Part shown: piece after piece, positions 7,677-30,080 of the stretch
Position numbering within the stretch: position 1 is the stretch's first letter
Layout: every line of letters starts with the position of its first letter
Assembly (NCBI GenBank): GCA_003094555.1
Contig: NATW01000091.1
Location: 1-35,726, forward strand
DNA length: 35,726 bases
From: a gamma proteobacterium symbiont of Ctena orbiculata
Lineage (GTDB): Bacteria; Pseudomonadota; Gammaproteobacteria; Chromatiales; Chromatiaceae
Direction: 5' to 3'
The notes under the pieces: generated by a model
What the model was told of the DNA's origin: nothing
Database searches by the model: none
The model's input: only the letters and a program-made list of their open reading frames with translations
Position numbers and translations under genes: made by a program

Positions 7677-7877
7677 CGAACCGCAGGAAAGGTTTGGCCG
7701 CTCGGATGGGTTCGCTCAGCAAACTCATGGTTGACGCTGACGATTTCCATTGGATACTGACGCGAATATCTTTCATTATCGGTACCACATAGAACTTGAG
7801 GTAATATGTGCAATGGAATTGTAACAGTCCCCGGGAGCAGCCGTGATATTTTTATCTCATGAATGCGGAGCAACAAG

Positions 7878-8798
7878 ATGACAGATAGAGACAACCAGTT
7901 TGAGGGCATGGATTGGCTCCGGGCGGAGCTGGAGGACGCCCTGGACGAGGACTATGAACTTGAGATGTCAGAGCCGGCCCTATCCATGGAGTTGCGCCGC
8001 ATCTATAAAAAAATGCATCCGCCGACCCTGGATCGGAGGGAGTACTTCAAGGCGCTGCTGACCCTGCAGGCGGAACTGATCAAGCTACAGGATTGGGTTG
8101 AACATAGCGGGGAGAAAGTCGTTATTGTCTTTGAGGGGCGGGACGCTGCCGGCAAGGGGGGTGTCATCAAGCGTATCACGCAACGGTTGAATCCCCGGGT
8201 ATGCCGCGTTGTGGCTTTGAGCAAGCCCACGGAAAAGGAGAAGTCCCAATGGTATTTCCAGCGTTACGCAGCCCACCTGCCGTCAGCAGGCGAGATCACC
8301 CTGTTCGATCGCTCCTGGTATAACCGCTCAGGGGTCGAGCGGGTGATGGAATTCGCGACTCAAGAGCAGGTGGAACAGTTTTTCCAGGATGTCCCGGATT
8401 TCGAGCGTTCCCTGGTCAGGTCGGGGATACGCCTGATCAAATACTGGTTCTCCATCACTGACGAGGAGCAGCAGTTGCGCTTTCTGATGCGTGTCCACGA
8501 TCCCCTCAAACAGTGGAAACTAAGCCCCATGGACCTTCAATCCAGGGTGCGCTGGGAGGATTACACCAAGGCCAAGGAAGAGACCCTTGCACGCACCAAT
8601 ATACCCGAGGCGCCCTGGTTCATCGTGGAGGGCAATGATAAGAAACGTGCGCGTTTGAACTGCATCCACCACCTGCTCGACCAGATCCCCTACAAGGATA
8701 TACCCAACGAAGCCATTACCTTGCCGGATCGTGTCTTCAATCCCAATTACGAACGCCAGGTATTGCCGTCATCACTCTACGTACCTAAGCGATATTGA
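7878..8798 (+). CDS. ppk2: Polyphosphate kinase 2 (PPK2 family)
   Basis: A 306-residue PPK2 that transfers phosphate between polyphosphate and nucleoside phosphates, most often making ATP or GTP from polyphosphate. Visible motifs: Walker A GRDAAGKGG at 87-95, Walker B LFDRSWYNR at 142-150, and the lid region around RWEDYTKAKEETLART (about 225-240). The C-terminus with NYERQVLPSSLYVPKRY is typical of the single-domain class I group. ATG 7878 is chosen over 7863 because GGAG lies 7 nt upstream of it. The gene is followed after 7 bp by the DUF502 gene, probably co-transcribed. Class I assignment is from general resemblance. Confidence 0.93.
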   Translation: MTDRDNQFEGMDWLRAELEDALDEDYELEMSEPALSMELRRIYKKMHPPTLDRREYFKALLTLQAELIKLQDWVEHSGEKVVIVFEGRDAAGKGGVIKRITQRLNPRVCRVVALSKPTEKEKSQWYFQRYAAHLPSAGEITLFDRSWYNRSGVERVMEFATQEQVEQFFQDVPDFERSLVRSGIRLIKYWFSITDEEQQLRFLMRVHDPLKQWKLSPMDLQSRVRWEDYTKAKEETLARTNIPEAPWFIVEGNDKKRARLNCIHHLLDQIPYKDIPNEAITLPDRVFNPNYERQVLPSSLYVPKRY

Positions 8799-8805
8799 AC
8801 CTGTT

Positions 8806-9480
8806 ATGACTGAGATAAAATCGAGACCGCTGCATATCCAGCGCTATCTTATCAGCGGCGTAATCACCCTTATCCCGCTTTGGGTCACCTGGCTGGTCTT
8901 CAAATATGTATTCAATCAGCTTTCAAAGTTGGGTGCGCCTTGGGTCAAGATACTTTCACACAGTATCAGGAACGAGTATCCGTCCCTTGCTCAATGGCTG
9001 CTTGAGCCATGGTTTCAAAACACCCTGGCCGTGTTCCTGATGCTGGTGGGTCTGTATCTGGTCGGTTGGTTCGCGAGTCGAATGATCGGCCGGAGAATCC
9101 TCAACATCTTTGAATCGACCGTGCAACGCCTGCCGGTGATTCAGAATGTCTATGGCTTGGTGAAGAAGCTCATTTCGGCGTTAGGGGATAAACCGGAAAA
9201 TGTACAACAGGTTGTGCTGATCGAATTCCCATCCCCCGAGATGAAGACGGTGGGATTCGTGACACGTACCATGGTGGATGACAACAGTGGACAGGAACTG
9301 GCGGCGGTGTATGTGCCAACCACGCCGAATCCCACCTCGGGCTATTTGGAGATAGTTCCCATCGAGAGGCTTGTGTCGACGGATTGGAGTATCGATGAAG
9401 CGATGAACTTCATCATCTCAGGGGGTGCGGTGGCGCCGGATACTGTGCCTTATACAAAAAATCAATCAGACAAAGCATAG
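8806..9480 (+). CDS. DUF502 family inner-membrane protein
   Basis: A 224-residue protein with two membrane segments (about residues 14-33 and 60-85) followed by a soluble domain, matching the DUF502 family. The conserved core around RLPVIQNVYGLVKKL and the segment YVPTTPNPTSGYLEIVP are hallmark features. Function in bacteria is not established. The frame extends upstream into ppk2, but ATG 8806 gives the usual family N-terminus and leaves a 7-bp gap after the ppk2 stop. It probably forms a two-gene unit with ppk2. Confidence 0.88.
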   Translation: MTEIKSRPLHIQRYLISGVITLIPLWVTWLVFKYVFNQLSKLGAPWVKILSHSIRNEYPSLAQWLLEPWFQNTLAVFLMLVGLYLVGWFASRMIGRRILNIFESTVQRLPVIQNVYGLVKKLISALGDKPENVQQVVLIEFPSPEMKTVGFVTRTMVDDNSGQELAAVYVPTTPNPTSGYLEIVPIERLVSTDWSIDEAMNFIISGGAVAPDTVPYTKNQSDKA

Positions 9481-9563
9481 CGCTAATCTTCGTCTATTCA
9501 TTGTCAGATAGCTCCTTTTAATTATTGCGATTTTCCAATTACTGGCAATACAGTTTGACTATT

Positions 9564-9591
9564 GCGGGGACCGTGCAGCCCCGGTCCCCGC
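9564..9591 (-). terminator. Stem-loop just downstream of the peptidase gene
   Basis: GCGGGGACC (9564-9572) and GGTCCCCGC (9583-9591) form a perfect 9-bp GC-rich stem around a 10-nt loop, 8 bp beyond the stop of the minus-strand peptidase gene and about 80 bp after the plus-strand DUF502 gene. There is no clear T-run in either direction, so termination efficiency is uncertain; it could serve both convergent genes or protect the mRNA 3' end. Confidence 0.5.
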
Positions 9592-9599
9592 TGAACGGT

Positions 9600-12500
9600 T
9601 TAACAGGCGTCGTCATCCTCGGCACGATCCTCGTCGAAGCAACAGGCATCGATGCTTTGGGGCGTACAACCGCGATCACAACAGCACTCACTGCAGCCGC
9701 ACTCGCCGCACTCCTTACCCGAGGCCTTTTCCCAGACGGTGTAGGCGAGCAGGTCGAGGGTTGTTTTCGGGTTCTCCGGATCGTCGCTCTTGATCACCAG
9801 TCCCTGGGCGCGCGGGCATTTCTCCTCGGCTTTGTAGCGTATCAGGATGTCGAGGCTCGCCCCCGGTTGCAGCGTCGCGGGGAAGGGGTTGTTGACCAGC
9901 TTCCAGTACTTACTCGGCCGCGCGAGGCCCACATGCGTCACGTGTAGCGGGCAGTGGCCGACGTTGGTCAGAGTGAGGGTCCGTTCGCCTGCGCAGCAGG
10001 CCTTGACGCCGCCGATGCAGGTTGAGCCGGTGATCGATAGACGTCCCGGAGGCGCAGTGCCAGTGACCTGGATCGTCTTTGGTCCCTGGGGATCGTCACT
10101 GTTTATCTTCAGCGCGCCCGCCTTGGTGCCAAAGTCGGATGGCTGGAACCGGATCGGGATTTGCAGGCTGTCGCCCGCACCGATCACGATGGGGAAGCTG
10201 AGGACGCTTGGCAGGACGAACTCGACACTCGACGTGGCGATGCTCTGGATCGTCAGCGGACAGGGGGCACTGTTGGAAAGGGTCAATAGCCGGTCGGTGA
10301 AGTCACCGACGCAGGTCTTACCGAAATCCCCATTGTCAGCGATTACCGAAACCAGGCGTGGTGGCGCCGCTTTGCCCGAGACCCTGAGCACGCGAGGCCC
10401 GCCGGGGTCGTTGGAAAAAACGGTGATCAGCGCCGTCTTGTTGCCGAACGAGGTGGGTTGGAAGCGTATCGGGATGTCGATGCTGTCTCCCGAGTCAATC
10501 ACGATCGGGTAGGCGTTGACCCCGGGGGCAACGAATTCCCCCGAATTGGAAGCGATGTTGGTGATCGAGAGCATACCGAATCCGCTATTGGAGAGGGTCA
10601 GGATCATGTCCTTCGCTGTGCCGACGCAGACATTCATGAAGGCGCCATCGTCGGGCAGCACGGTGACGAGCCGCGGGCGGAGTTGCACGGTCCGGATTGC
10701 GATGTTGTTGTCGTTGGGCACGAGCCGCCAGTCCTCGATGGTGCGGCCCGCGTGGTATTTGTCCGCATTGTCCGGATCGCCCTCGGCCGAGACCACCATC
10801 ATCATGCTGTCATCACCGTCTTCGTTCGGGTTAGGCGCCCAGGCGAAGGGGCCGACGACGATCTCCTCGGCGTCGTTGGGTTGGATCGTGGGTGCACCGA
10901 TCTCCGGGGTGTCCATGGCCTTGAAGTCGGTGGGCCAGACATGTCCCTCGAGCGGCTTGCAGTGGAAGCCCCGGACATTGACCTGGTTGGCGATGGAGCT
11001 GCCGCGGTTCTTCACCCGCACATAGGCGTAGTTGGTGCCGATCACCGGATCCTGGTGGGCGCCGCCCGCATCGGGCTGGTGTCGGTTCCAGATGGTTGCG
11101 GTGGCCCGGTGGTCGGCGAGATACTCGTATTCGCCACCGCGCCCGTCGTCGATATAGACATCCACGAGGGGTGGGTCGCCGTCATTCAGATCCTGTTTCT
11201 CGAAGGACCATTCGAGCACCTTCTCGTAGGCGCCCCCCGAGAGGCCGCGGGTGGTCCAGTCACCCGCATCGGCGGTCAACAGCGCGTCTAGGAAACCTGC
11301 CGGGGAGCCTGGGTTGGTGGCAGGGGAGAGGGTGCTGACTGCGCGGAGCATGAGATAGGTCATGACATGGGCCGAGAATTCGCGTCGTGTCAGTGCCGTG
11401 GCGTCGCCGCCGATGCTGCGATAGGCGCGGAACAGGGTCGTCGACAGGATCTGCTCGGAGGAGTAACTGCCCACATCATTGGTGCCGCCCCAGCCCCAGC
11501 CGGCGGCGGGATCCCGGTCTGAGCGCCGCCCCAGGTTGGAGTAGGGCCAGAGCATGAAACGGTCGTTGTTGCCGCCATTGTGCCATCCGGAATAGGGGTC
11601 GTTCAGGATCATACCGAAGCTGTCCCCGGCGCTGTGTGCAAAGCCGAAGTTCGCGCTGTTCACATGGTCGTAGAGGATGCCGTGTCCGCCAAGTTCGTGG
11701 AGCACCAGATACCAGTCCGAGGCATTGCCCGTGGGCGTCCCGCCGGTGTTGTCGATGCGACCGTAGCAGGCGTGTTCGATGCCATCCCCGTCACCGTAGC
11801 AATGGCCGTTGTTGCTGCCGCTGAAACCCCTGTGGTCAACCTTGATGGGAAAGCTGGTGCCGTCGAAATAGGTATCCAAGGGAAAGCCCAACTCCTCCAC
11901 CAGACGGAAAAAGCGGTCGTTATTATAGTAGGCATTGACGGCGAGAAACTCATCGGTACGCACGTCGTAGTCGAAATCCACACCATCGGGCTGGGTGGGT
12001 GGTGGGATGTTGGGATTGTGCACATTTATCACTTGCACGTATTCGCCAGTCAGCGATTGGGTGCCGCCCACGGCCGGGTCCAGGCCGAGCAGCTCCACGT
12101 CGTCCCGCAGCGGATTGAGCACCGCATTGCTTTGGCTGGCGTCGTTTGCCGTGTCCCCTGTGGAAATGATCGGATCGTAGGTGAAGACGAGCCCGTTCAC
12201 GTGGGAGGTGAGCGCCCGCAGATAGAGAATCTCCCCGGTCGCGACGCTGACCAGGAAGCGCCAGTTCATGTGATGTCCCTCGTGGGGCAGCCGGACGATA
12301 AGTTCGGCCACGAGATGCCAGCTGCCATCCTTGAGGGAGTCGGGAAGCATCGCCAGGGGCAGGGTTGGGAGGTGTTCCTCCTCGATCGGCTCTGCGGGAT
12401 ATTTCTCCGGCTTTTCCGCGGGCTCCGGATGGTCATGCTGGCGCCGCGCCCGGTCGAGCTGATAGACGTAGAAGCGTCCGGAGATGAGTTCGGGCTTTGC

Positions 12501-13061
12501 GCGGTCCTTGCCCTTGCTGGAGCCGTCGAGGCATGAGCCAAGAATCTCGGAAAGCTGGGTTGTTGCCGCGCCTAGTGCCTGTTTCGATGTGCCCTCCCCA
12601 GCCCCGGGGCCTGACTCGCCGGCGGAGAAGAGCTTACGGTAGCGGTTGATGTCGCGGGCCGGGGGTAGCTCGGCATCAATGCACGTTTTACTCGTGTTGA
12701 CGATCGAGATGATGCGGCCGGTTTCCTCATTTCTGGTCGCCGTGATCCCGGCGCCCCAGACCGGTGTATCGAGATAGGTCTGGGTATAGACGTAGGTGGT
12801 GGTATCGAAGAAGGTCTTTTCATCGGCAAGGTGAAAGGAGGGGCCTGATTTTTTTGGCTCTATATGGCTCGCTTTACGGCCAAGCTCGCTCAGCTCCGCG
12901 ATGTCGATACCGAGTTTACCGGCGAACTGGCGGACATGGGATTTCGCCGAGGCGCTGCTCGGCGTTGCCGAGCCGTTGTTAGCAAAAGTGATCGCCCGTA
13001 TGGTGCCGTCACCATCCCGGGTTATCGTGGCGTTTAGATCTGCTTCGAGACTGTGTTTCAT
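9600..13061 (-). CDS. Fungalysin/thermolysin-like metallopeptidase-related protein with three choice-of-anchor-D domains and a Cys-rich tail
   Basis: An 1153-residue protein starting at ATG 13061, which has GGAGG about 5 nt upstream. Segments: an FTP-like propeptide (about 75-125); a peptidase domain (about 290-600) with the zinc motif HELGGH at 455-460 and a second helix whose usual glutamate position appears to be AGDSFG (D480); a beta-rich CARDB-like region (about 630-795); three tandem choice-of-anchor-D/ASH-like domains (about 798-898, 899-1003, 1005-1108), each with a repeated RFQP/SDDP-type signature; and a tail with ten cysteines between 1118 and 1153. No signal peptide is visible at the N-terminus, although such enzymes are normally secreted. 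Catalytic activity is likely but uncertain because Asp replaces the usual third zinc ligand. It stands alone. Confidence 0.75.
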   Translation of the reverse strand: MKHSLEADLNATITRDGDGTIRAITFANNGSATPSSASAKSHVRQFAGKLGIDIAELSELGRKASHIEPKKSGPSFHLADEKTFFDTTTYVYTQTYLDTPVWGAGITATRNEETGRIISIVNTSKTCIDAELPPARDINRYRKLFSAGESGPGAGEGTSKQALGAATTQLSEILGSCLDGSSKGKDRAKPELISGRFYVYQLDRARRQHDHPEPAEKPEKYPAEPIEEEHLPTLPLAMLPDSLKDGSWHLVAELIVRLPHEGHHMNWRFLVSVATGEILYLRALTSHVNGLVFTYDPIISTGDTANDASQSNAVLNPLRDDVELLGLDPAVGGTQSLTGEYVQVINVHNPNIPPPTQPDGVDFDYDVRTDEFLAVNAYYNNDRFFRLVEELGFPLDTYFDGTSFPIKVDHRGFSGSNNGHCYGDGDGIEHACYGRIDNTGGTPTGNASDWYLVLHELGGHGILYDHVNSANFGFAHSAGDSFGMILNDPYSGWHNGGNNDRFMLWPYSNLGRRSDRDPAAGWGWGGTNDVGSYSSEQILSTTLFRAYRSIGGDATALTRREFSAHVMTYLMLRAVSTLSPATNPGSPAGFLDALLTADAGDWTTRGLSGGAYEKVLEWSFEKQDLNDGDPPLVDVYIDDGRGGEYEYLADHRATATIWNRHQPDAGGAHQDPVIGTNYAYVRVKNRGSSIANQVNVRGFHCKPLEGHVWPTDFKAMDTPEIGAPTIQPNDAEEIVVGPFAWAPNPNEDGDDSMMMVVSAEGDPDNADKYHAGRTIEDWRLVPNDNNIAIRTVQLRPRLVTVLPDDGAFMNVCVGTAKDMILTLSNSGFGMLSITNIASNSGEFVAPGVNAYPIVIDSGDSIDIPIRFQPTSFGNKTALITVFSNDPGGPRVLRVSGKAAPPRLVSVIADNGDFGKTCVGDFTDRLLTLSNSAPCPLTIQSIATSSVEFVLPSVLSFPIVIGAGDSLQIPIRFQPSDFGTKAGALKINSDDPQGPKTIQVTGTAPPGRLSITGSTCIGGVKACCAGERTLTLTNVGHCPLHVTHVGLARPSKYWKLVNNPFPATLQPGASLDILIRYKAEEKCPRAQGLVIKSDDPENPKTTLDLLAYTVWEKASGKECGECGCSECCCDRGCTPQSIDACCFDEDRAEDDDAC

Positions 13062-13550
13062 CACACTCCTCCATTTTCTGGACAATCAACCTTGTTGGAA
13101 ATCCGCAACGAATATGCAGCCTTCCAACATCCTTCTTAAGAAAACTTTTTACAACACAGTTTTCTTTGTCCTCAGTCAGCCATGAAATATCTAAATATTT
13201 GATTTGCGGGATTAAGATACCCTGCGGATTATGCAAAACCGAGGTTGGAAATCCTTTCCCTATGGGCCGCCAGGGGCGCCGGGCATGCGACGACTCAGGA
13301 GAGCGTACATGGGAATATAAATCCTAGTGTAGAAGGGCCGTGTGAGCCTTACAAAGTGAAAGTTACCGTGCAATTGGATAAAAAATCGGGTATGGGAATG
13401 CTGACACGCCTTTCTGCAGACTCAAATATGATATCAGCTATAACATACAAAGCTGACCTATATGATGAAACGCAATTGGTATATTCAGCCTGATATGGAG
13501 ATCTGCCCTTCCCATGGCATTACGTGATGGATTCTTAGGCAAGTTAACAA
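13062..13550. other. 489-bp intergenic region, only one weak small reading frame
   Basis: This is the upstream leader of the peptidase gene on the minus strand and lies beyond the 3' end of the GGDEF/EAL gene. GTTGGAAATCC occurs twice in direct orientation (13094-13104 and 13244-13254), 150 bp apart. A plus-strand frame at 13245-13493 (82 codons from TTG) has a protein-like second half (KVKVTVQLDKKSG) but no ATG near its front and no ribosome binding site; I do not call it a gene with confidence. Confidence 0.4.
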
Positions 13551-15929
13551 TCAATCAATGCCTTGTACCAGTGCATTGACCCTGGCATATAGCTTATGAC
13601 TGCATTCGTGTAACTTTCCCAGCTGCTCGTGCACCAAGCGGGCATCGCCAGTGCTATGTAGTTCGATCAGCCTGTCTGCGATTGCATGGACCTCCTGATG
13701 AAGCCCCCTGATGTGCTTAAATGAAGGCTGGTGTGCATAGCGATTCTCACCGATACCATCTATCCAGCGGCTGAACCGGCATTCGTTCTCACCCAGCAGT
13801 GGTGCGGAGTCCTGTCCATTCTGGAGATGCCGCTCGATATCCTTGATCCAGGCACGATGCTCGACAGCAGCTATCAGGGTTGGTACATCCTCCCGGTCAA
13901 TACGCTTCTGTCGGCGCCAAGTTGGGTCCGGCTGCCATGCAACTGCCCAGCCTGGAAGTCCCTCCGCCGGCATGGGGTGCGAAATCGCATAACCCTGCGC
14001 CAGTTCATAGCCAAGCTGCAATAGCATTCGCCCGCGTTCAATCGTCTCCACACCCTCAGCGATGATTTCACGATCCAGCGCCCTTGCCAGGTCGTGCACC
14101 GCGCCCAGGATGACGAGATCCTCGGGATTGTCGAACACACCGAGAAGGAAACTCCGGTCGACCTTGAGTATATCGACCGACAGACGCTTGATGTAGCCCA
14201 GTGACGAAAAGCCGGTTCCAAAGTCGTCGAGGGAAAAACGTATGCCCAACTCGTTGCATGCGTTTATCACCTCCGAGACGTGATCAATATCCATCAACGC
14301 ACTCGACTCGAGTATCTCTATCTCCAGTAACTGAGGTGGTACGCCAGGATGGGCAGCCAGCAATGCCCGTAAACCCTCGACGAAATCGGGCTGTTGCAGG
14401 TGCATGGCCCCGATATTGATGCTGACGGACATTTCGAGACCTTGGGACAGCCATGACTCAATCTGAGTCAGAGCGGTCTCCATCACCCACTTGCCGATGT
14501 CGACGGAGAGCGGATGTGTCTCGATCAGGGGTAAGAATTTAGCTGGTGCCTCCAGGCCGCGCCGGGGATGTTGGCGACGGATTAGCGCTTCCACCCCGAT
14601 GATCTTGCCAGTGCGCATATTGACTTTTGGCTGGTAGTACAACAGGAATTCATTCTGATTTAGGGCGCGACGCAATGCCTCGATGGTTTCGTGATGTTCA
14701 CGGATGCCGCGATCCTGCTGCTCGTCGAAAAACTGGAAACGGTTCTTACCGATCAGCTTGGCCTGGTACATTGCCCGATCTGCTTGGCGCAGCAACTGAT
14801 CGGCGTTTACTTCCTCGTCCTGTGGATAGGTGGTGACGCCTATGCTTGCGGTGACCTTCAGCAGGTGCTCCTCCATTGGCACCGGGCGCGAAACGCAGTC
14901 GAGCAGGCGATTTAGCAGTGGTACGCAGTTTTTGGTCTCATCGAGATCGATCAACACCGCGACGAACTCATCGCCACCAAGGCGACCAATGGAATCACCC
15001 GAGCGCAGGATCTTGCGTATGCGTTTCGTAATCTCGGTTAGGAGATGATCACCCGCGGCATGGCCGTAGGTGTCATTGACATCCTTGAAACTGTCGAGGT
15101 CTATATAGGCAACCGCGAGTTGGCGACGGTGACGAGAAGACTGGGCCAAGGCCATCTGCAAGCGATCGATCAATAGGGTCCGATTGGGCAGGCCTGTCAA
15201 GGTGTCGTGATGAGCGATGTACTCGAGCTCGGTCTGATGAGCCTTTTGTTTGCTGATGTCCGAAAAAAGGCCTATGTAGTGGGAGGTAGAGCCATCTTCA
15301 TTGCAAACGGAGGAGATCGTCAGGTTCTCCGGATATGCCTCGCCGTCTTTGCGTCGGTTCCAGATCTCGCCCCGCCAGTGTCCTTCATCCAGGAGGCTTT
15401 TCCACATGCCAGTGTAGAAAGCCTTTTGGTGACGGCCGGAAGCGAGAATCCTGGGATTCCGGCCTAGAATTTCTTTGCGTGGGTAGCCGGTTATGCGGCA
15501 GAAGGCATCGTTTACTTCCAGAATCGTCGCGTCCGTATCAGTGATAACTATACCCTCGTGTGCATGTTCAAAGACGCTGGCAGCCTGTTTCAGTTTCTCT
15601 TCGGTGTGCTTGCGTTCAGTGATATCGTGCATAGAGACCAGCCAAGCCTCTTCACCCTCCCAGACGCCGAGTCGAACCGACATCTCAGCAGTCACGGTCA
15701 GGTTATTCGGTTGCACAACAATGACCTCGCGCGGTGTGCCGGTGACAATGGGGAAGGAGAAGGGTGAGCCGATGAGTTCGGTTGCGGGGCGTCCAAACAA
15801 CGCTGACGCGGCCTCATTGGCAAAGATGATGATGCCCTCGCCGTCGAGCACAATCACACAGTCGGACAAGGCGGCAACCAGCTGTTGCCAGTCCGAGTGG
15901 TATGGTTTAGCCGTCTTTTCCGCGCACAT
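13551..15929 (-). CDS. PAS-PAS-GGDEF-EAL-CZB protein (bifunctional c-di-GMP enzyme), kai operon
   Basis: A 792-residue cytoplasmic c-di-GMP enzyme. Domains: PAS 1 (about 12-105), PAS 2 with PAC (about 113-232), GGDEF (about 235-400), EAL (about 410-665) and a C-terminal chemoreceptor zinc-binding CZB-like domain (about 683-790). The cyclase motif GGDEF is intact at 318-322, with the inhibitory RSGD at 309-312 exactly five residues before it. The phosphodiesterase motifs EAL (447-449), DDFGTG (568-573) and EGVE (625-628) are intact, so both activities are possible. CZB ligands expected from the family are visible: H691, C717, H744 and H748. Its start overlaps the end of kaiB by 23 bp, so it is co-transcribed with kaiB/kaiC and is a candidate output enzyme. 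Confidence 0.93.
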   Translation of the reverse strand: MCAEKTAKPYHSDWQQLVAALSDCVIVLDGEGIIIFANEAASALFGRPATELIGSPFSFPIVTGTPREVIVVQPNNLTVTAEMSVRLGVWEGEEAWLVSMHDITERKHTEEKLKQAASVFEHAHEGIVITDTDATILEVNDAFCRITGYPRKEILGRNPRILASGRHQKAFYTGMWKSLLDEGHWRGEIWNRRKDGEAYPENLTISSVCNEDGSTSHYIGLFSDISKQKAHQTELEYIAHHDTLTGLPNRTLLIDRLQMALAQSSRHRRQLAVAYIDLDSFKDVNDTYGHAAGDHLLTEITKRIRKILRSGDSIGRLGGDEFVAVLIDLDETKNCVPLLNRLLDCVSRPVPMEEHLLKVTASIGVTTYPQDEEVNADQLLRQADRAMYQAKLIGKNRFQFFDEQQDRGIREHHETIEALRRALNQNEFLLYYQPKVNMRTGKIIGVEALIRRQHPRRGLEAPAKFLPLIETHPLSVDIGKWVMETALTQIESWLSQGLEMSVSINIGAMHLQQPDFVEGLRALLAAHPGVPPQLLEIEILESSALMDIDHVSEVINACNELGIRFSLDDFGTGFSSLGYIKRLSVDILKVDRSFLLGVFDNPEDLVILGAVHDLARALDREIIAEGVETIERGRMLLQLGYELAQGYAISHPMPAEGLPGWAVAWQPDPTWRRQKRIDREDVPTLIAAVEHRAWIKDIERHLQNGQDSAPLLGENECRFSRWIDGIGENRYAHQPSFKHIRGLHQEVHAIADRLIELHSTGDARLVHEQLGKLHECSHKLYARVNALVQGID

Positions 15930-16197
15930 ACAGGTCCAGTCCGACCAGGATACGTTCCCGATCCGATAGATCGCCTATGATCCTGCGCATGGGCTCCGGC
16001 AGTTTTTTGATCAATACCGGCGTAGCGAGGATGCGCTCCTCCTCCGCCAGGGTGGGATTCTCAATCAGGTTGATAACCTCGAAATCATAGTGGGCGGCAA
16101 CCTCCGGCTCTTTGCACAGGGCATTCAGGTTGTCGATAGCACGCCGCGTCACTGGGGTATTGCCGATGATATACAGACGTAGGGTGTACTTGGGCAC
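15907..16197 (-). CDS. kaiB: KaiB clock protein homologue
   Basis: A 96-residue KaiB with strong similarity to the cyanobacterial protein: LRLYIIGNTP at 6-15, ILATPVLIKKLP at 56-67, RRIIGDLSDRE at 71-81 and GLDLY at 86-90. In cyanobacteria KaiB switches to a thioredoxin-like fold and binds the CI ring of phosphorylated KaiC. The start is GTG 16197 with GAGG upstream. It lies 56 bp after kaiC and overlaps the GGDEF/EAL gene by 23 bp. Every block that surrounds the fold-switching half is kept, so KaiC binding is likely. Confidence 0.95.
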   Translation of the reverse strand: MPKYTLRLYIIGNTPVTRRAIDNLNALCKEPEVAAHYDFEVINLIENPTLAEEERILATPVLIKKLPEPMRRIIGDLSDRERILVGLDLYVRGKDG

Positions 16198-16253
16198 GGG
16201 TTAACCTCTATGCTTGTTGATGCTCGAACAGAGTCGAACTATTAGTAGTGATA

Positions 16254-17909
16254 TCACTCTTCTCTCATTTCCTGCATGCTAGCCCGCAACCCCGTCACCT
16301 GGCCGGCCTGTCTTTTCAGCTCGTCGAGCCGACGCATCAATTCCTGCTTTTCAGACTCGAATTCAGCCCCTAATACACGTTGCTTGGATTCATAAGCGGT
16401 TTGCAGTCTTGATAGGGCCTGTTCAACCTGCTCCAGCTCAAAGCGTTTTCGCTCCGCCTCCTCCTGGTCCTGTTTGACACGCGACATCTTGGCGCTACCG
16501 ACCACCAGATTTCCCTCGCCGATATAGGGATCTTCTATAACGATACCCTTTTCTCCGATGGTGAACTCCTTGACCTGATTGGAGGTTTTGGAGCCGCGGG
16601 ATTTGACTACATTGATCAGGCGGTTGAGCTCGCCGTTACTCTCTACCTGACGCAATCTGAACCAGGTATCCACCAGGCTGGAGATGGCCAGCTCACTGTA
16701 GTCGTCGGATGCATCGGGCAGCAGTTCGGTCAGCAACAGGCTCGAGCCCAGCTCTCTGATGTAGGAGATGAAGCGGATCATCAGCATCTTTACCATCTGT
16801 GACGATCCCATATCGATCAGCGCGGAGACCGGATCGAGCACCAGCAACTCCGGTGAGGTCTTGTCAACCAGATCGATGATGGTGATCAGATGGTCCTCCA
16901 GTCCCATCTCGATTGCGCGGCCGGAATGGATCACCAACTGTCCGCTATCACAGTACTCGGTCAAGTCGATTCCCACGGACTGCAGATTGCGTATCATGTC
17001 GCTTTCAGACTCCTCGAAGGTGACATATATCGCCTTTGCCCCCTGTTGCAGCACCTGGTGGGCCATGGTGTTGGCAAAAATCGTCTTGCCGCTACCTGAA
17101 CGGCCACTGATCATCAGGCTGGCCCCCTTGAAATAGCCTTCCCCCCCCAACATGTTGTCGATACGGGGAATACCGGTGCTGACCCGGTCTGTCATCATCC
17201 TGTGGTCGAGGCGAGTGGCGGTGATCGGGAGCAGAGAAACGCCACTGTGGTTGAGACTGAACGGATAGCTGTTGGAGCCGTGGGCCGAGCCGCGCATCTT
17301 GAGTACCCGCAGATAGCGGGTCATCAGCTGGTTGTTGAGATTCTGGCTCAAATGGATCACGCAATCCACCGCATACTCCTCAAGCAGGCTTGGCTGCAGG
17401 CCATCCTGTGCGGCCGACATAGTGACAAGGGTGGTCACCCCTTTCTCGCGCACCCAATCGAAAAGTTCCAGTATCTCTTTGCGTGGCTCAGTCACCCCAA
17501 GCCCCATCATCAGGTTTTGCAGGGAATCGATGACCAAGATCTCTGCATTACTCTTTTCTATGGCATAGCTGATGCGTAACAGAATGGGTGACAGGTCGTA
17601 CTCGCCGACAACGGTTTCGTCCAGATTGGGGCGAAAATCGAGGATCAGAAGTTTTCCCGAGGCGAGATGTGCCGAACCCTGCATGCCAAACTTGTCCATA
17701 TAGCCGACCAGGCGTTCGGGGGATTCGTCGCAGGTTGCGATGACCGCCGAACCTCCCTGTTGCAGTTGGGCATGAGCAAAACCGAGGCTGAAAACCGTTT
17801 TCCCTGTGCCTGGTCCACCTTTGATCAAGGTAGGACTGGCCGCCGGGTATCCCCCGTTCAAAATAGTGTCTAGACCTTTGAGGCCAGAGGATATTTTATG
17901 ATTTTTCAT
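16254..17909 (-). CDS. kaiC: KaiC-type double-RecA ATPase with C-terminal coiled coil
   Basis: A 551-residue KaiC (cyanobacterial KaiC is 519). ATG 17909 is used because GGGAG lies 5 nt upstream. CI: Walker A GPGTGKT at 32-38, with the paired catalytic acids D61-E62 where cyanobacteria have Glu-Glu. CII: Walker A GRSGSGKT at 269-276 and E299-E300. The residues aligned with the S431/T432 phosphosites are S410-S411, and the T426 position aligns with S405. After about residue 470 the KaiA-binding tail is replaced by a charged heptad-like coiled coil (about 474-545). KaiC hydrolyses ATP slowly and autophosphorylates; no kaiA is present in the window. It lies between two kaiB-like genes. Confidence 0.95.
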   Translation of the reverse strand: MKNHKISSGLKGLDTILNGGYPAASPTLIKGGPGTGKTVFSLGFAHAQLQQGGSAVIATCDESPERLVGYMDKFGMQGSAHLASGKLLILDFRPNLDETVVGEYDLSPILLRISYAIEKSNAEILVIDSLQNLMMGLGVTEPRKEILELFDWVREKGVTTLVTMSAAQDGLQPSLLEEYAVDCVIHLSQNLNNQLMTRYLRVLKMRGSAHGSNSYPFSLNHSGVSLLPITATRLDHRMMTDRVSTGIPRIDNMLGGEGYFKGASLMISGRSGSGKTIFANTMAHQVLQQGAKAIYVTFEESESDMIRNLQSVGIDLTEYCDSGQLVIHSGRAIEMGLEDHLITIIDLVDKTSPELLVLDPVSALIDMGSSQMVKMLMIRFISYIRELGSSLLLTELLPDASDDYSELAISSLVDTWFRLRQVESNGELNRLINVVKSRGSKTSNQVKEFTIGEKGIVIEDPYIGEGNLVVGSAKMSRVKQDQEEAERKRFELEQVEQALSRLQTAYESKQRVLGAEFESEKQELMRRLDELKRQAGQVTGLRASMQEMREE

Positions 17910-17943
17910 GTTATCTCCCATTTCTCTCAATTGCTTGGCAGAT

Positions 17944-18303
17944 CTATTTTAATTTGTTGCGCAGATGAGCTACTTTCTGCACCATTTTACCTGCATTTCG
18001 CTTCATTTCTTCAGCATCATGATACATGCCAATGGCAATTATGAAAGATTCTGAAGTGGAGAGATCACCGACAAAGCGATGCTGTTTGGATTCAGGCGTT
18101 GTGACTTCCAGCGTGGGTACGGCAATGATCCGTCGTTGCTCTGAGAGCGCTGGATTTTGACGAAGGTCGATGACCTCCAGTGTATAGGGATTGGATAAAT
18201 GTTTCTGGCAAAGTTGACGAAGCCTGTCAATAATATCTGGTGATTTCTGTTTTACAGAATCGACATAAAGGGCAAGATGATACTTCTCATCAATGTTATT
18301 CAT
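17944..18303 (-). CDS. Divergent KaiB-like protein (second copy)
   Basis: A 119-residue protein with the KaiB fold pattern: strand YHLALYVDS, then TLEVIDLRQNPALSEQRRI (about 41-59), AVPTLEV (61-67) and FVGDLS (77-82). It lacks the GNTP motif and the full RRIIGDLSDRE block of true KaiB and adds a basic helical tail (about 95-119). It is the first gene of the operon, 34 bp before kaiC. It may compete with KaiB for KaiC, or be an adaptor to another partner. Classification as KaiB-domain is good; its function is unknown. No obvious ribosome binding site precedes ATG 18303. Confidence 0.8.
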   Translation of the reverse strand: MNNIDEKYHLALYVDSVKQKSPDIIDRLRQLCQKHLSNPYTLEVIDLRQNPALSEQRRIIAVPTLEVTTPESKQHRFVGDLSTSESFIIAIGMYHDAEEMKRNAGKMVQKVAHLRNKLK

Positions 18304-18907
18304 TGGAAGGTCAGCTGAAATAATCCAATCTACACAACACGATTACAGTATAGCTGAGGGTTGAGTTCTGATGTCTGATATTGGCTGAAAACAGTGCTTG
18401 CTTCGGTACCTGCCAAATGGATCAGTCATCCAAATCGGGACTGCTGGCTTAGACCAGAGCATCGTTCTCAAGCCATTGTAAAATTCAGCCAGTATATGTG
18501 GCAGTCTGGCACGGTACTGTTTTCCGATAACCAGGTTATGCATTCTTCTATATGCGCGGTTATATTTCATATTAACCTGCTGTATGGATTGCTGTAACGG
18601 ATGGTGGAAATCGCTGAATAAAAAATCCACTTATTAATACATGGTATTTGATTTGCTTTGTATTCACGGTAAGACAATACCTTGCTACAAATCGGAACCC
18701 TGATTAGTAAACAGTCAACTTAAGAGGTCAGACTGTCATCCTGCCAAGATTGGGTTGCGTGCATTGAGCTATACTGATGACGATAAAATATTAATACATT
18801 GAGTCGTTAGGAAGGGTTGTAAAAGAGATAATTTTCAATCGCGGTAAGACGATCCGCTGAGCTTGTGAGTGGATATTGATCTACGGACGGAGCGGGGAGC
18901 TCTACGC
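18304..18907. promoter_or_regulatory. 604-bp divergent spacer between the kai operon and the RND-GGDEF fusion gene
   Basis: This AT-richer region must hold the promoter of the kai operon (minus strand) and that of the transporter fusion (plus strand). CGGTAAGAC occurs twice in direct orientation (18667-18675 and 18842-18850), the second copy about 58 bp before the fusion's ATG. A minus-strand frame of 95 codons (18343-18630, GTG start; internal ATG 18570 with AGG upstream) is present, but I recognise no family and have no strong support for it. No clear sigma70 hexamer pair was found by eye. Confidence 0.45.
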
Positions 18908-21900
18908 ATGATGAATATCATCCTAACCGCTGCACGCTATCCAGGCTGGGTGCTACTGGTACTTGGATCTATCACGCTTCTCGCGATCACCCGTTTGCCG
19001 GATTTACGCGTCGAGATCACCGCCGAAGGGATGATGGTCAACAATCCCCCGGCTATCGCCGAATACCAGCGCACCATGGACACCTTCGGCAGTGAAAATA
19101 TCACCGTCATCTATCTGGAAGATCCAAATCTGTTTGAACCAGAGAACCTTTCAGCCATCCGCCAGGCATTGAAGGTTATTGAGGCCATTCCTCATGTCAG
19201 CCGGACCGTCAGCCTCTTCTCGGTGCATTATCTGCGTACAGTGGATGGATATATCTATACTGATCCCTACCTGAAATCCATTCCACAGACCCGTGAAGCC
19301 GCTGATGCTTTGATACAAGCGGCACTGATCAATCCCCTGATCGAAAGAAATCTGCTCTCCAGAAATGGCTCTGTCATGGCGATCAACCTGTTTTTCGACA
19401 TGGAGCATTACCATCGCGGCTTTGATGAGGAGGTTGCGTTTGCACTGGATGATGCGATTAAGCCTTTGCAACAGCGCTTCCGGCAAGTATTTCATTTGGG
19501 CGATCCCTCGGTGCGGAAAGATATTTCAGAACAGATCCGCTCCGATCAACGCCTGATTCTACCACTCGCCCTGATGGTGCTTGTGGTTACCCTTGCGCTC
19601 ACCCAGCGCCACTGGCTAGCCCCAATGATCCCGTTACTGACCGCCGGCATGAGTGTGGTTTGGATTTTGGGTTTGATGGCGGTCCTCGCTATCCCGGTAA
19701 ATGTCATGACCTCGATTGTGCCGGCCCTGCTGATCATCGTGGGTTCAACCGAAGATATCCATTTGCTGTCTGAGTACCAGGCTGCCATTCGCAAGGGAAA
19801 GAAGCATCTGGCGGCGATCAAACTGATGGCAAAGTACATGGGGATAGCTATCGTATTGACCTTTGTGACCACTTTTATGGGTTTTCTTTCGATCTCCCTC
19901 AATCGTATTGATCTGCTGCAACAGTTTGGTCTGATCACCGCCTTGGGATTGGCAATGAATTTCCTGGTCACCATCACCCTGGTCCCGGCCTGTCTGCAAC
20001 TAACCCGGCAATTTGGTCTGGAAACACTCTCTACAACCCACTACCCATTTGCGTCATTTACAACCTGGCTCTATCAGCAGCTGTCCCGCTATCCGAAGGC
20101 GATCATTGGCTCCGTACTGATGTTGATGGCGATCTGTCTCTTGTGGGCAACCCAGATCAAGGTCAATAACAATGTAATGGACTACTTTGATCATCGCTCT
20201 GAAGTACCACAGCAAGCCAAATTTCTACATCAAAACCTGTCTGGGATGGATGCGCTCTCAATCGTGCTGAGCGGAACCCAAGGCACCTTCCTGCAAGTGC
20301 CTTATCTCGAGGAACTGGATAGGCTCCAGGACTATCTTGACGAGACAGGTCATTTTGACAAGAGCTTTTCATTTGCCGATTTCATTGGTGTGGTCCACAG
20401 CGGTATCGATGGTGAATGGCCCGGCACTATCTATCTCCCTGCGCGTAATGAAGTGGTCAAGGAGTATATGTCCCTGTTGGATCATGTAAATGCGGCGGCC
20501 TTTGTCTCAGCCGATTACAGCCAAGCCCGTGTTCTGGTCCGGCACGCCATCAGTTCATCCCATGAACTGAACGAGGCGGTTGACGAGGTCAAGCAGTACG
20601 CCGAGCAATGGATGGACCCGACCTTGGATGTGATGATCACGGGTAGCAGCTATCTTAACAGTCAGGCTGTGGATTACATGGCGGACGGCCAGGCAAGGTC
20701 ACTGTTACTGATGCTGTTCGTGATATTCCTCCTGGTGGCCCTGCTGTTCATGAACATAAAAGCAGGTTTGATAGCCGTGATAGCCAATCTGTTTCCGATT
20801 GTGGTGTTATTCGGTGTCATGGGGATGTTTGGTATTGCATTGGATACCGGCACCACCATGGTGGGAGCCATCGCCTTAGGTATCTGCGTCGATCACACCA
20901 TGCATTTTATGGCGCGTTACCAACGCCTGGCTAAAAACTGCCGATCAGGATCGGAGGCCCTGGTTCAGGTCATCCAGCAGGAATCAACCCCCATCATAAC
21001 CACGGCACTGGCCTTGGCTGCCGGCTTCGCTACATTGACCTTATCCAACTTTCCCCCGGTGACCCTGTTTGGCCTGTTGAGCGCCTTGGTCATGTGTCTG
21101 GCTTTGCTCGGGACCTTTGTGCTCATCCCACTGATGTTGCGAAACACCCGCCTGATTAGCGTATGGGATCTACTCTCGCTACACCTGAGAAGAGATGTCC
21201 TGGATAAATGCCAATTGCTTAAGGGCATGCGGCCATGGCAGGTCAGAAAACTGGTGGCAGTGAGTCATATCAGGGAGTATGAACCGGACGAAGCGATTCT
21301 TCTGCAGGGTACTTCATACGATACCATGCTGGTGCTGCTCAAGGGTCAGGCCGAGGCCTGGCGTACCCGGCATGATGGCTCAACCTATCTGGTCAGTAGC
21401 TATGAACCTGGTGATGTTTTCGGCGTGTCATCGCTGGTTACCAACCGGGAGCGATTGGCTGATGTGGTTGCTGTCGGTAATGTGCAGGCATTGTCACTAC
21501 GCTGGGAAAGTATCCATCGAATCGCTCGACTCTATCCCCGTATAGCTTCCAGATTTCATGAAAATCTTTCCACCATCATCGCTAAACGGTTGTTTCATGA
21601 AACCGATAGTCTCTCTTATCAGGATGAACTGTCGGGTCTTTACAGCGCCTCCTTTCTACAAGAGTTGTTGAACTTCACAGCAGAGAAGGCGAATCGATAC
21701 AAAGAGCCACTCTGTCTGATCATGCTTACCATAGAAGGTGAAGAGGTGATAATTCAAAACCATGGGCGGCAGGCGCTGCGCTGGGTGTTCCGTGAGATTG
21801 CAAAAGCGGTAAAACAGGCACTACGCAAAGTCGACTTGCTCTCTCGTTGGGGGGTTGGGGAGTTTATTATCATGTTACCAAGAACGGACCACACTACATT

Positions 21901-22084
21901 GGAGGAGATTGTGTGGCGTTTACAGGATGCCCTTCGAGAAGCGGATTTCAGTGTGGTCGATGTGCTGAATATACAGGCGCGCTGGGCTAACCTTCGGGAT
22001 GGCGAGACCGCTCAATCTCTGGTGACACGGGCGAAATCCCATGATGCTATTTGGGAGTTAAAGCAAGTCAAAAGTGCTGAGTGA
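18908..22084 (+). CDS. RND/MMPL-type transporter fused to a cNMP-binding-like domain and a degenerate GGDEF domain
   Basis: A 1058-residue fusion. ATG 18908 is preferred to GTG 18869 because GGGGAG lies 8 nt upstream. Residues 1-750 form an RND-superfamily (MMPL/HpnN-like) unit: membrane segment 1 at about 4-28, a periplasmic loop, a membrane cluster at about 215-365, another segment near 397-415, a second loop, and a cluster at about 598-747. Repeated polar motifs STEDIHLLSEYQ and CVDHTMHFMARYQ sit in each half. About 772-897 is a CRP/cyclic-nucleotide-binding-like beta barrel (YEPGDVFG). About 902-1052 is a GGDEF fold in which GGDEF is replaced by GVGEF (982-986), while the inhibitory RxxD site (R973, D976) is kept at the right spacing. 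It is probably a c-di-GMP-sensing, not c-di-GMP-making, transporter; substrate unknown. Confidence 0.85.
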   Translation: MMNIILTAARYPGWVLLVLGSITLLAITRLPDLRVEITAEGMMVNNPPAIAEYQRTMDTFGSENITVIYLEDPNLFEPENLSAIRQALKVIEAIPHVSRTVSLFSVHYLRTVDGYIYTDPYLKSIPQTREAADALIQAALINPLIERNLLSRNGSVMAINLFFDMEHYHRGFDEEVAFALDDAIKPLQQRFRQVFHLGDPSVRKDISEQIRSDQRLILPLALMVLVVTLALTQRHWLAPMIPLLTAGMSVVWILGLMAVLAIPVNVMTSIVPALLIIVGSTEDIHLLSEYQAAIRKGKKHLAAIKLMAKYMGIAIVLTFVTTFMGFLSISLNRIDLLQQFGLITALGLAMNFLVTITLVPACLQLTRQFGLETLSTTHYPFASFTTWLYQQLSRYPKAIIGSVLMLMAICLLWATQIKVNNNVMDYFDHRSEVPQQAKFLHQNLSGMDALSIVLSGTQGTFLQVPYLEELDRLQDYLDETGHFDKSFSFADFIGVVHSGIDGEWPGTIYLPARNEVVKEYMSLLDHVNAAAFVSADYSQARVLVRHAISSSHELNEAVDEVKQYAEQWMDPTLDVMITGSSYLNSQAVDYMADGQARSLLLMLFVIFLLVALLFMNIKAGLIAVIANLFPIVVLFGVMGMFGIALDTGTTMVGAIALGICVDHTMHFMARYQRLAKNCRSGSEALVQVIQQESTPIITTALALAAGFATLTLSNFPPVTLFGLLSALVMCLALLGTFVLIPLMLRNTRLISVWDLLSLHLRRDVLDKCQLLKGMRPWQVRKLVAVSHIREYEPDEAILLQGTSYDTMLVLLKGQAEAWRTRHDGSTYLVSSYEPGDVFGVSSLVTNRERLADVVAVGNVQALSLRWESIHRIARLYPRIASRFHENLSTIIAKRLFHETDSLSYQDELSGLYSASFLQELLNFTAEKANRYKEPLCLIMLTIEGEEVIIQNHGRQALRWVFREIAKAVKQALRKVDLLSRWGVGEFIIMLPRTDHTTLEEIVWRLQDALREADFSVVDVLNIQARWANLRDGETAQSLVTRAKSHDAIWELKQVKSAE

Positions 22085-22162
22085 TGGGCCTGTGATCAAT
22101 CAAATAACTTTGTAATGTAATGCTGATTGACTGATTCTATCCATCCCAATCTGCCTATAGAA

Positions 22163-22184
22163 CCCCGCCTCAGATAAGGCGGGG
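22163..22184. terminator. Bidirectional terminator-like hairpin between convergent genes
   Basis: CCCCGCCT (22163-22170) and AGGCGGGG (22177-22184) make a perfect 8-bp GC-rich stem with a 6-nt loop, followed on the plus strand by ATGTTT. It sits between the RND fusion gene (ends 22084) and the minus-strand cold-shock gene (ends 22203), so it can end transcription from both sides. Confidence 0.7.
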
Positions 22185-22202
22185 ATGTTTAAAATCAACA
22201 GG

Positions 22203-22412
22203 TTACAGGGGAACTACATTTTCCGCCTGAGGGCCTTTCTGGCCAGCGGTTTCGGTAAATTCGACTTTTTGGCCGTCTACCAGGTTGAGATGGCCTTCAC
22301 CAACGATGGCACGGAAATGCACAAACAGGTCTTTTCCTGATTCGCGCTCGATAAAGCCATAACCTTTTGCACTGTCGAACCACTTGACGGTTCCGGTTTG
22401 TCTTTCAGACAT
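22203..22412 (-). CDS. Cold-shock domain protein (CspA family)
   Basis: A 69-residue single cold-shock domain with RNP1 KGYGFI (16-21) and RNP2 LFVHF (29-33) intact. It binds single-stranded RNA/DNA and acts as an RNA chaperone or antiterminator. ATG 22412 is chosen over the upstream in-frame start because GAGG lies 9 nt before it and it gives the standard N-terminus [12 protein letters not shown]. It is transcribed alone; as in other csp genes a long 5' leader may lie upstream. Confidence 0.96.
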
Positions 22413-22802
22413 CTTTAAATACCTCAATCAATATAAAAATTCATCCGTCTCCAAGAGCGGACACTCACCACAAATCTTGGATAACACTATGAAGCACGAT
22501 TCGGGTGTAACTGTTGAGGAAACAGCGAATGTTAGGCGTTAGGACTAAGATCTTGCAGATAATTTACCATATACAGCTTGCTACTGAATTGCAATCGGTT
22601 ATTTTCTGTGATGGCTAAATTTTAAACAACAAATCAGGCATGAATAGAAAATGAGACCGGTCCCTGATAAATAAATAATCTATATGATACGACTTCAACT
22701 ATAATTACCCTATCGTGGACTTGTAGACTAAAGGATTAAGCCGTCTTTCATAAATACTATAGCCGCAATTGGATGGAGCGGCGTCAGTAAGCAGGCCTCA
22801 TC
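22413..22802. other. 390-bp AT-rich intergenic region upstream of csp and DUF1488 genes
   Basis: No supported gene. It must carry the promoter and possibly a long, structured 5' leader of the csp gene on the minus strand, and the promoter of the plus-strand DUF1488 gene. The content is strongly AT-rich around 22560-22740. I could not define a -10/-35 pair or a cold-box with confidence. Confidence 0.4.
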
Positions 22803-23102
22803 ATGACTTGGACCAACAGAAGAATATCCGTTTCAGACGATACAGTGATCCATTTTCCCGGATATGAGTCATGGAACAGCATGACAGAGATGGCAACAGT
22901 TGCAGCAGATGTCAACAAAGAGCGTGTACTCTGTAGAGTGTCGTTGAATATCCTGGAAGATAAATTTGGTGTTATGGATGACACACCGGTGCGTTGTATC
23001 GCTCTCCATCGTGCAGAAATACAAGAGGCGGCTAGAAAGTTGATACAGAGCGAATCCTTCGAGGATGACGGATCAATACTGATTCGATCAGGCGATATCT
23101 GA
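22803..23102 (+). CDS. DUF1488 family protein
   Basis: A 99-residue protein with the DUF1488 pattern: a beta-rich start with FPGYESW, a central segment RVLCRVSLNILEDKFG and a helical end HRAEIQEAARKLIQ. The family is small, common in gammaproteobacteria and beta-proteobacteria, and of unknown function. An overlapping minus-strand frame (22784-23128) is the shadow. The ribosome binding site is weak. It converges with the NYN-domain gene. Confidence 0.7.
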   Translation: MTWTNRRISVSDDTVIHFPGYESWNSMTEMATVAADVNKERVLCRVSLNILEDKFGVMDDTPVRCIALHRAEIQEAARKLIQSESFEDDGSILIRSGDI

Positions 23103-23157
23103 CAATAATATCCGGACCTTCTCAGCAAGCTGATTTTATAAGGTTCTCAGGTTTTGA

Positions 23158-23976: not shown

Positions 23977-24051
23977 TGGTCACTGTCCTGTTAAAGGTGT
24001 CTTTTTCTTGTTATCACGGAATGGGGTTCATACATTCTAGTCGCATATATG

Positions 24052-29885: not shown

Positions 29886-29890
29886 CTGAA

Positions 29891-30053: not shown

Positions 30054-30080
30054 CCATATTAGATGGGACGGAGTATAGAT

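What the first reader, a model, noticed from the sequence alone, without database searches (positions are those of the whole stretch)
13551..18303. KaiA-less Kai operon hard-wired to a c-di-GMP enzyme
Four minus-strand genes lie in one unit: KaiB-like, KaiC, KaiB and a PAS-PAS-GGDEF-EAL-CZB protein; gaps are 34 and 56 bp and the last pair overlaps by 23 bp. Domains and overlap are seen directly. KaiB and KaiC are clock proteins in cyanobacteria. The overlap argues that the c-di-GMP enzyme is made with KaiB and is the output of the module, so a slow KaiC ATPase or phosphorylation state could time biofilm, motility or host-association switches. From memory, a Legionella kaiBC operon with a GGDEF/EAL gene has been reported; I cannot verify this here.
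Basis: partly seen in the sequence, partly recalled or inferred. Interest (0 to 1): 0.9.

Follow-up and report, generated by a model that had tools for sequence, protein, structure and literature searches.

The report
Clock-protein operon with c-di-GMP enzyme
In a relative of clam symbionts, clock-type KaiB and KaiC genes share an operon with an enzyme predicted to make and break the signal c-di-GMP; this kind of operon was already known, but the enzyme's first domain is of a type that, in many of the kai-bearing genomes examined, sits mostly beside kai genes, which suggests where the two halves might connect.

Summary
In detail: kaiB1, kaiC, kaiB2 and PAS-PAS-GGDEF-EAL-CZB lie on the minus strand, gaps 34 and 56 bp, last overlap 23 bp. 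The kind is known: a 2011 paper (PMC3164672, section read) reports GGDEF/EAL genes beside kaiC-kaiB. Nine of ten fetched Legionellaceae kaiC loci carry kaiC-kaiB-PAS-PAS-GGDEF-EAL. The window adds a divergent upstream KaiB.
'Hard-wired' is too strong: KaiC is in 3 of 22 genus genomes, one without the enzyme; a same-species genome has an empty site.
New here: in 36 kaiC-bearing genomes with a match to the enzyme's first PAS domain, the best hit lies beside kaiC in 31 (22 of 27 outside Legionellaceae), on kinases as well as GGDEF proteins; for its second PAS domain 8 of 33 (0 of 24). Among 72,556 plasmid records PAS1 had one hit at E<=1e-8, 47 bp behind a kaiC. Against: 25 of 63 kaiC-bearing genomes have no PAS1 match, and most Kai-linked GGDEF-EAL enzymes of other gammaproteobacteria lack it. 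Timing, binding and c-di-GMP effects are untested.

The parts
17944..18303 (-). kaiB1: divergent upstream KaiB, 119 aa with C-terminal extension
   Evidence: Pfam KaiB 58.8 bits; with its G019 and G008 counterparts a separate long-branched clade; GC 42% against about 55% for the other three genes
16254..17909 (-). kaiC, 551 aa, CI and CII domains plus C-terminal extension
   Evidence: Pfam and NCBIfam; best PDB matches 8dba, 8fwi, 8db3 (that these are Rhodobacter KaiC is recalled); Walker A in both domains, D61-E62 in CI, E299-E300 in CII, S410-S411 aligned with SS of 8dba and EE of 8fwi
15907..16197 (-). kaiB2, canonical KaiB, 96 aa
   Evidence: Pfam KaiB 80 bits; PDB matches include 4kun Lpp1115; placed with modest support near Legionellaceae KaiB
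13551..15929 (-). PAS-PAS-GGDEF-EAL-CZB c-di-GMP enzyme, 792 aa
   Evidence: GGDEF, RSGD (I-site-like), EAL, DDFGTG and EGVE motifs present
15594..15929 (-). PAS1 (residues 1-112), the Kai-linked PAS subtype
15240..15593 (-). PAS2 (residues 113-230), used as control
14739..15215 (-). GGDEF domain
13974..14681 (-). EAL domain
13668..13859 (-). CZB domain with His and Cys residues for a possible zinc site
15907..15929 (-). 23-bp overlap of kaiB2 and the enzyme gene
   Evidence: same overlap in G008
13398..18394 (.). stretch without counterpart at this site in same-species genome G039 (the four-gene cassette)
18395..18522 (+). 128-bp fragment (91% identical) of a DUF1648 gene that is whole in G039

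Best explanation
It is a KaiB-KaiC switch or hourglass of the KaiC2/Rhodobacter type, independent of KaiA, whose dedicated output is a bifunctional c-di-GMP enzyme. Proposed mechanism: KaiC, a double-domain ATPase with an SS pair and a C-terminal extension, sets a slow state that depends on ATP/ADP. Canonical KaiB2 binds and turns over that state. The PAS1 domain of the enzyme reads KaiC (or KaiC-KaiB2), or a ligand common to both, and shifts the balance of GGDEF and EAL activity; CZB may add a zinc or oxidant input. Divergent KaiB1 may compete with KaiB2. Shown: anatomy, intact motifs, family placement, Legionellaceae counterparts, presence or absence as one block, and the Kai linkage of PAS1 in many but not all lineages. 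Inferred: KaiC autophosphorylation and slow kinetics, PAS1 as the contact, and the direction of control.
For: Four-gene unit with overlap, also in G008. The set is present or absent as one block between flanks 98% identical to a same-species genome. Nine of ten fetched Legionellaceae kaiC loci carry kaiC-kaiB-PAS-PAS-GGDEF-EAL; the window enzyme aligns from residues 4-25 onward at 34-41%. PAS1 best hit lies beside kaiC in 31 of 36 genomes against 8 of 33 for PAS2 of the same protein; outside Legionellaceae 22 of 27 against 0 of 24. A profile of 40 Kai-linked PAS domains from 24 loci outside the genus and Legionellaceae gives PAS1 97 bits and PAS2 6 bits, though its members were picked by similarity to PAS1. 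The subtype sits in HK, GGDEF and GGDEF-EAL proteins. Plasmid scan: one hit at E<=1e-8 in 72,556 records, beside kaiC. KaiC's best PDB matches are Rhodobacter KaiC (organism recalled), which PMC11372060 (passages) describes as a KaiA-independent hourglass whose C-terminal extension joins hexamers. c-di-GMP genes are enriched beside kaiC (18 class-sample loci: 8 of 28 partner genes against 7 of 151 others, p 4e-4; 30 other loci of the phylum: 13 of 76 against 7 of 256, p 4e-5).
Against: G019 keeps kaiB1-kaiC-kaiB2 without the enzyme and without a PAS1 match. 25 of 63 kaiC-bearing genomes have no PAS1 match at 1e-8. Of seven Kai-linked GGDEF-EAL enzymes in the class sample only L062 carries PAS1: L051, L057 and L060 score 13-17 bits, and the genomes of L052, L054 and L058 have no match. 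So c-di-GMP outputs can sit beside kaiC without PAS1. PAS1 was not searched in Kai-less chromosomes; 12 of 62 hits in kaiC-bearing genomes are unlinked. The PAS2 control used a stricter limit (1e-12) and only the 38 genomes with a PAS1 match. No interaction, phosphorylation or c-di-GMP data. CI has D-E where the aligned Rhodobacter KaiC has E-E.
Confidence: 0.5

Rival explanations
1. A stress-response module, not a timer. KaiC and KaiB2 act as a stress or energy sensor, PAS1 senses its own ligand, and the c-di-GMP enzyme is a parallel arm of the same regulon without physical contact.
For: Passages seen state that Legionella Kai proteins and Pseudomonas Kai proteins act in stress responses. A shared ligand would also explain shared PAS1, and Kai-linked enzymes without PAS1 exist.
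Against: PAS1 follows kaiC across kinase, GGDEF and GGDEF-EAL outputs in eleven family labels outside Legionellaceae, which a shared regulon alone explains less simply.
Confidence: 0.33
2. Adjacency without coupling: the four genes travel as a cassette and are co-transcribed, and the enzyme works on its own.
For: The cassette is present or absent within one species; G000 has 64 GGDEF matches; G019 lacks the enzyme.
Against: PAS1/PAS2 contrast, plasmid scan, enrichment of c-di-GMP genes beside kaiC, Legionellaceae counterparts.
Confidence: 0.12
3. Reverse direction: the c-di-GMP enzyme or its product tunes KaiC.
For: Expression of a phosphodiesterase lengthened the Synechococcus period by 0.6 h and pulses shifted phase (PMC13001216, passages).
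Against: [quoted passage not shown] the sensory domains lie on the enzyme side.
Confidence: 0.05

Closest known systems
Legionella kai operon (Loza-Correa et al. 2014, seen only as a title in a reference list; unnamed Legionellaceae loci examined here)
   Same: kaiC, then kaiB, then PAS-PAS-GGDEF-EAL, co-directional, with short gaps or overlaps; KaiC 39-47% identical in the nine loci; enzyme alignable from near its N-terminus
   Different: no upstream KaiB detected in the ten fetched Legionellaceae loci; CZB match in only 2 of them
kaiC-kaiB context with downstream HK or GGDEF/EAL gene (PMC3164672, 2011, section 17 read)
   Same: the same general context, already described outside cyanobacteria
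   Different: that section names PAS domains in neighbours but no PAS subtype shared by different outputs
Rhodobacter sphaeroides KaiBC hourglass (PDB 8dba, 8fwi, 8fwj, organism recalled; PMC11372060 passages)
   Same: double-domain KaiC with SS pair and C-terminal extension, KaiB, KaiA-independent
   Different: second, divergent KaiB; c-di-GMP enzyme in the operon; D-E instead of E-E in CI
kaiC-kaiB-kaiB-HK clusters in the 79 named loci (mostly other phyla)
   Same: KaiC with two KaiB in 63 of 79 loci
   Different: there usually both KaiB downstream and a histidine kinase partner (55 of 79; c-di-GMP gene in 4); PAS1 subtype in 8 of 79, one of them strong

Membership tests
Legionella-type kai operon | kaiC-kaiB followed co-directionally by a PAS-PAS-GGDEF-EAL gene | tested here: met
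Legionella-type kai operon | enzymes of the two groups share one origin | tested here: inconclusive
   GGDEF-EAL tree of 42 rows: one clade not recovered (0% of bootstrap trees) but not rejected either (AU p 0.474)
KaiC2/Rhodobacter-type KaiC | two KaiC domains with Walker A motifs and an SS phosphorylation pair | tested here: met
   that KaiC2 homologues of cyanobacteria have two serines: PMC5520375 passage
KaiC2/Rhodobacter-type KaiC | extended C-terminus joining two hexamers | tested here: inconclusive
   extension present and alignable to residue 527; the assembly was not tested
KaiC2/Rhodobacter-type KaiC | KaiA-independent autophosphorylation with hourglass kinetics | not testable with these tools
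   needs purified protein
Cyanobacterial KaiABC circadian clock | KaiA encoded with kaiBC | tested here: not met
   no KaiA among the operon genes; the rest of the genome was not searched for KaiA
Bifunctional c-di-GMP enzyme | intact GGDEF and EAL motifs | tested here: met
   activity not testable here
CZB zinc-binding domain | Pfam CZB match with His/Cys ligands | tested here: met
   42.6 bits, cut-off 29.4; H and C positions; the ligand motif itself is recalled

The most novel reading that the evidence does not exclude
In several lineages of Pseudomonadota a specific PAS subtype is the interchangeable plug by which Kai modules drive their outputs. It takes the place of the KaiB-like domain of SasA, is fused to histidine kinases, GGDEF or GGDEF-EAL enzymes, and in this cassette couples a KaiBC hourglass directly to c-di-GMP.
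Probability: 0.3. Interest if true: 0.78.

Novelty: new member of a known kind. Interest (0 to 1): 0.5.

Why it matters
How non-cyanobacterial Kai proteins act on the cell is largely open: the passages seen speak of stress response or unclear function. A Kai-linked PAS domain gives a small, testable contact point with an internal control (PAS2) in the same protein. If PAS1 reads KaiC, one domain would explain kinase and c-di-GMP outputs alike. The within-species presence or absence of the cassette offers a natural pair of strains to compare.

Tried and rejected
Local recruitment of the enzyme: a first GGDEF-EAL tree (57 rows; bootstrap not settled) put the window enzyme among genus paralogues and showed the nine Kai-linked rows as several lineages (8 changes, at least 5 forced by starred branches, no bootstrap tree with one; label shuffles are as low in 180 of 500). 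With Legionellaceae rows added, a common origin with them was not rejected (p 0.474), so local recruitment is not claimed. Several origins among other gammaproteobacterial lineages still stand, but the unlinked rows were chosen by similarity to the window enzyme.

PAS1 as the only plug, or a universal one: rejected. 25 of 63 kaiC-bearing genomes lack a match, most Kai-linked GGDEF-EAL enzymes of the class sample lack it, and 8 of 79 named loci have it. On checking my draft I lowered the best explanation from 0.55 to 0.5 and the novel case from 0.35 to 0.3 for this, and raised two rivals slightly.

KaiC tree (72 rows, quick method, long branches warned of): the c-di-GMP label (29 rows) needs 17 changes, at least 15 by starred branches, yet is more clustered than shuffles (3 of 500 as low). 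Two labels there (L048, L052) were set by hand. Promoter and terminator scans were at chance level (4 found, 5.0 expected; 5 found, 4.3 expected). Cassette ends: no match beyond the window's own loci and the G039 fragment among the fetched loci. The divergent MMPL-cNMP-GGDEF gene was considered a part and rejected: it lies in the shared flank. Structure prediction and fold search were not run.
Full report
Observation. The enzyme gene shows no obvious ribosome-binding site of its own and starts inside kaiB2. Homology to Legionellaceae enzymes begins at residues 4-25, so the overlapping start is plausible. GGDEF, RSGD, EAL, DDFGTG and EGVE motifs are intact.

Source. Genome G000 has 4.07 Mb in 193 contigs. 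Its congener G008 corresponds to the named record NAUB01000026.1, a gammaproteobacterial symbiont of Stewartia floridana (contig length 140154 in both). That the host is a lucinid clam and the genus Candidatus Thiodiazotropha is recalled, not a tool result.

Distribution in the genus. KaiC was found in 3 of 22 genus genomes. G008 has the full set, with KaiC 79%, kaiB2 90%, enzyme 75% and kaiB1 61% identical. G019 has kaiB1-kaiC-kaiB2 just after a sigma-54 response regulator and no enzyme behind it. The same-species genome G039 gave no KaiC match. In the 19 kb fetched around the site its flanks are collinear (window 7760-13397 at 98.4% and 18762-31319 at 98.5%), while window 13398-18394 has no counterpart; G039 instead has a 164-aa DUF1648 gene, of which a 128-bp piece remains in the window, and window 18523-18761 is also unmatched. 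The simplest reading is that the cassette entered and broke that gene; loss in G039 with separate decay in G000 is not excluded.

Other Pseudomonadota. A sample of 369 gammaproteobacterial genomes gave KaiC in 19, the window included. I fetched all 18 others. By script, 8 of 18 have a GGDEF, EAL or HD-GYP gene in the co-directional cluster. By hand two more qualify: L048 (REC-HD-GYP 139 bp behind kaiB) and L052. A sample of 398 genomes of the phylum gave 33 with KaiC, the window included; all 32 others were fetched, and 13 of 32 have such a gene. Among non-Kai genes of the clusters c-di-GMP domains are commoner than in the rest of the same loci: 8 of 28 against 7 of 151 (18 class-sample loci, p 4e-4), 13 of 76 against 7 of 256 (30 other loci, p 4e-5), 2 of 5 against 0 of 21 (two more, p 0.03), and 5 of 142 against 9 of 826 in 79 named loci (p 0.04). 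In those 79, kept as best of 571 matches and mostly from other phyla (L064 left out), 4 have a c-di-GMP gene and 55 a histidine kinase.

Legionellaceae. Of 93 genomes of the family, 13 have a KaiC match. I fetched 10 of these 13 (not G770, cut by a contig end, nor G793 and G803, partial matches). Nine of the ten have kaiC-kaiB-PAS-PAS-GGDEF-EAL; the tenth (L261) does not. The enzyme frame is 665-793 aa in eight and a 609-aa first frame in one; identity to the window enzyme is 34-41%; kaiB and enzyme frames overlap by 11-26 bp in six of the nine. No upstream KaiB was found there. So the operon kind is that of Legionella plus one KaiB. Of the Legionella paper I saw only the title in a reference list; it is not held.

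PAS1. Residues 1-112 of the enzyme were searched in 63 kaiC-bearing genomes (3 of the genus, 18 of the class sample, 32 of the phylum sample, 10 Legionellaceae). 38 had a match at 1e-8 and 25 had none. Without G000 and G008, the best match of 31 of 36 genomes lies within 3 kb of kaiC; the five exceptions are G226, G563, G346, G271 and G405. Of all 62 listed matches 50 are within 5 kb. The control, PAS2 of the same protein, was searched at 1e-12 in the 38 genomes with a PAS1 match; three (G514, G533, G764) had none. Best matches lie beside kaiC in 8 of 33 genomes without G000 and G008: 8 of 9 Legionellaceae (the ninth, G781, is a near tie, 4.9e-28 against 6.0e-28) and 0 of 24 others. Many genomes are relatives, so counts are not independent; the 22 linked cases outside Legionellaceae span eleven family labels. 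In the ORFs of the Kai loci the subtype is found 60 times at 1e-8: histidine kinases 29, GGDEF 16, GGDEF-EAL 13, other 2; this counts several per locus, Legionellaceae and the window, and G008 twice.

Limits of PAS1. The profile was built from 40 Kai-linked sequences found with PAS1, so its preference for PAS1 (97 bits against 6 for PAS2) is partly built in. Of seven Kai-linked GGDEF-EAL enzymes of the class sample (L051, L052, L054, L057, L058, L060, L062) only L062 carries the subtype (109 bits). So the subtype marks some lineages of Kai outputs, not all.

Plasmids. PAS1 has one match at 1e-8 or better among 72,556 records (E 2e-14): a PAS-HK-REC-REC gene 47 bp behind kaiC on a Sphingobium plasmid, with a short KaiB-domain gene in front. 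Five weaker matches (6e-6 to 8e-5) exist; one Azospirillum was opened and lies in a chemotaxis neighbourhood, the Rhizobium one has no annotation, the other three were not opened. PAS2 gives 300 places in 224 records at 1e-8.

KaiC and KaiB. The best PDB matches of KaiC are 8dba, 8fwi and 8db3, Rhodobacter KaiC by recollection. S410-S411 align with SS in 8dba and EE in 8fwi. CI has D61-E62 where these two have E-E. kaiB2 is canonical and sits with modest support near Legionellaceae KaiB; kaiB1 forms a divergent clade of the genus with lower GC. Short KaiB sequences make that tree weak.

Literature. PMC3164672 (section 17 read) states that outside cyanobacteria almost all kaiC-kaiB clusters have a histidine kinase or GGDEF/EAL gene immediately downstream. 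PMC6627678 (passages) notes a PAS protein in the Rhodobacter kaiBC operon. In the listings I saw no paper on a Kai-linked PAS subtype or on kaiC in Thiodiazotropha; only open-licence papers are held, so this is weak evidence of absence.

Verdict. A real unit of an already described kind, conserved in one congener and present or absent within its species. The new element is the contrast between PAS1 and PAS2, which adds an argument from domain content to the argument from adjacency and points to a specific contact to test.

Noticed in passing
window 18869-22084 (+): MMPL transporter fused to a cyclic-nucleotide-binding domain and a GGDEF domain whose motif reads GVGEF, divergent from kaiB1 but outside the cassette.
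   Followed up: partly
L262:3251-6815 (Sphingobium plasmid): Short KaiB-domain gene, kaiC and a PAS-HK-REC-REC gene in a row on a 1.28-Mb plasmid.
   Followed up: partly
L048:7573-10645: kaiC-kaiB followed by a REC-HD-GYP-type gene, a different class of c-di-GMP enzyme beside Kai.
   Followed up: partly
L222, L230, L233, L235, L236: kaiB-kaiC-kaiB-GGDEF order in genomes of the same phylum but outside the class, in four of five followed by a histidine kinase in the same cluster; both kinds of partner carry the PAS1 subtype.
   Followed up: partly
window 27932-32163 (+): Four genes resembling a cytoplasmic NAD(P)-linked (sulf)hydrogenase, below the equivalog cut-offs.
   Followed up: no
window 9600-13085 (-): Large protein with choice-of-anchor D / ASH-type repeats and an HELGGH stretch.
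   Followed up: no
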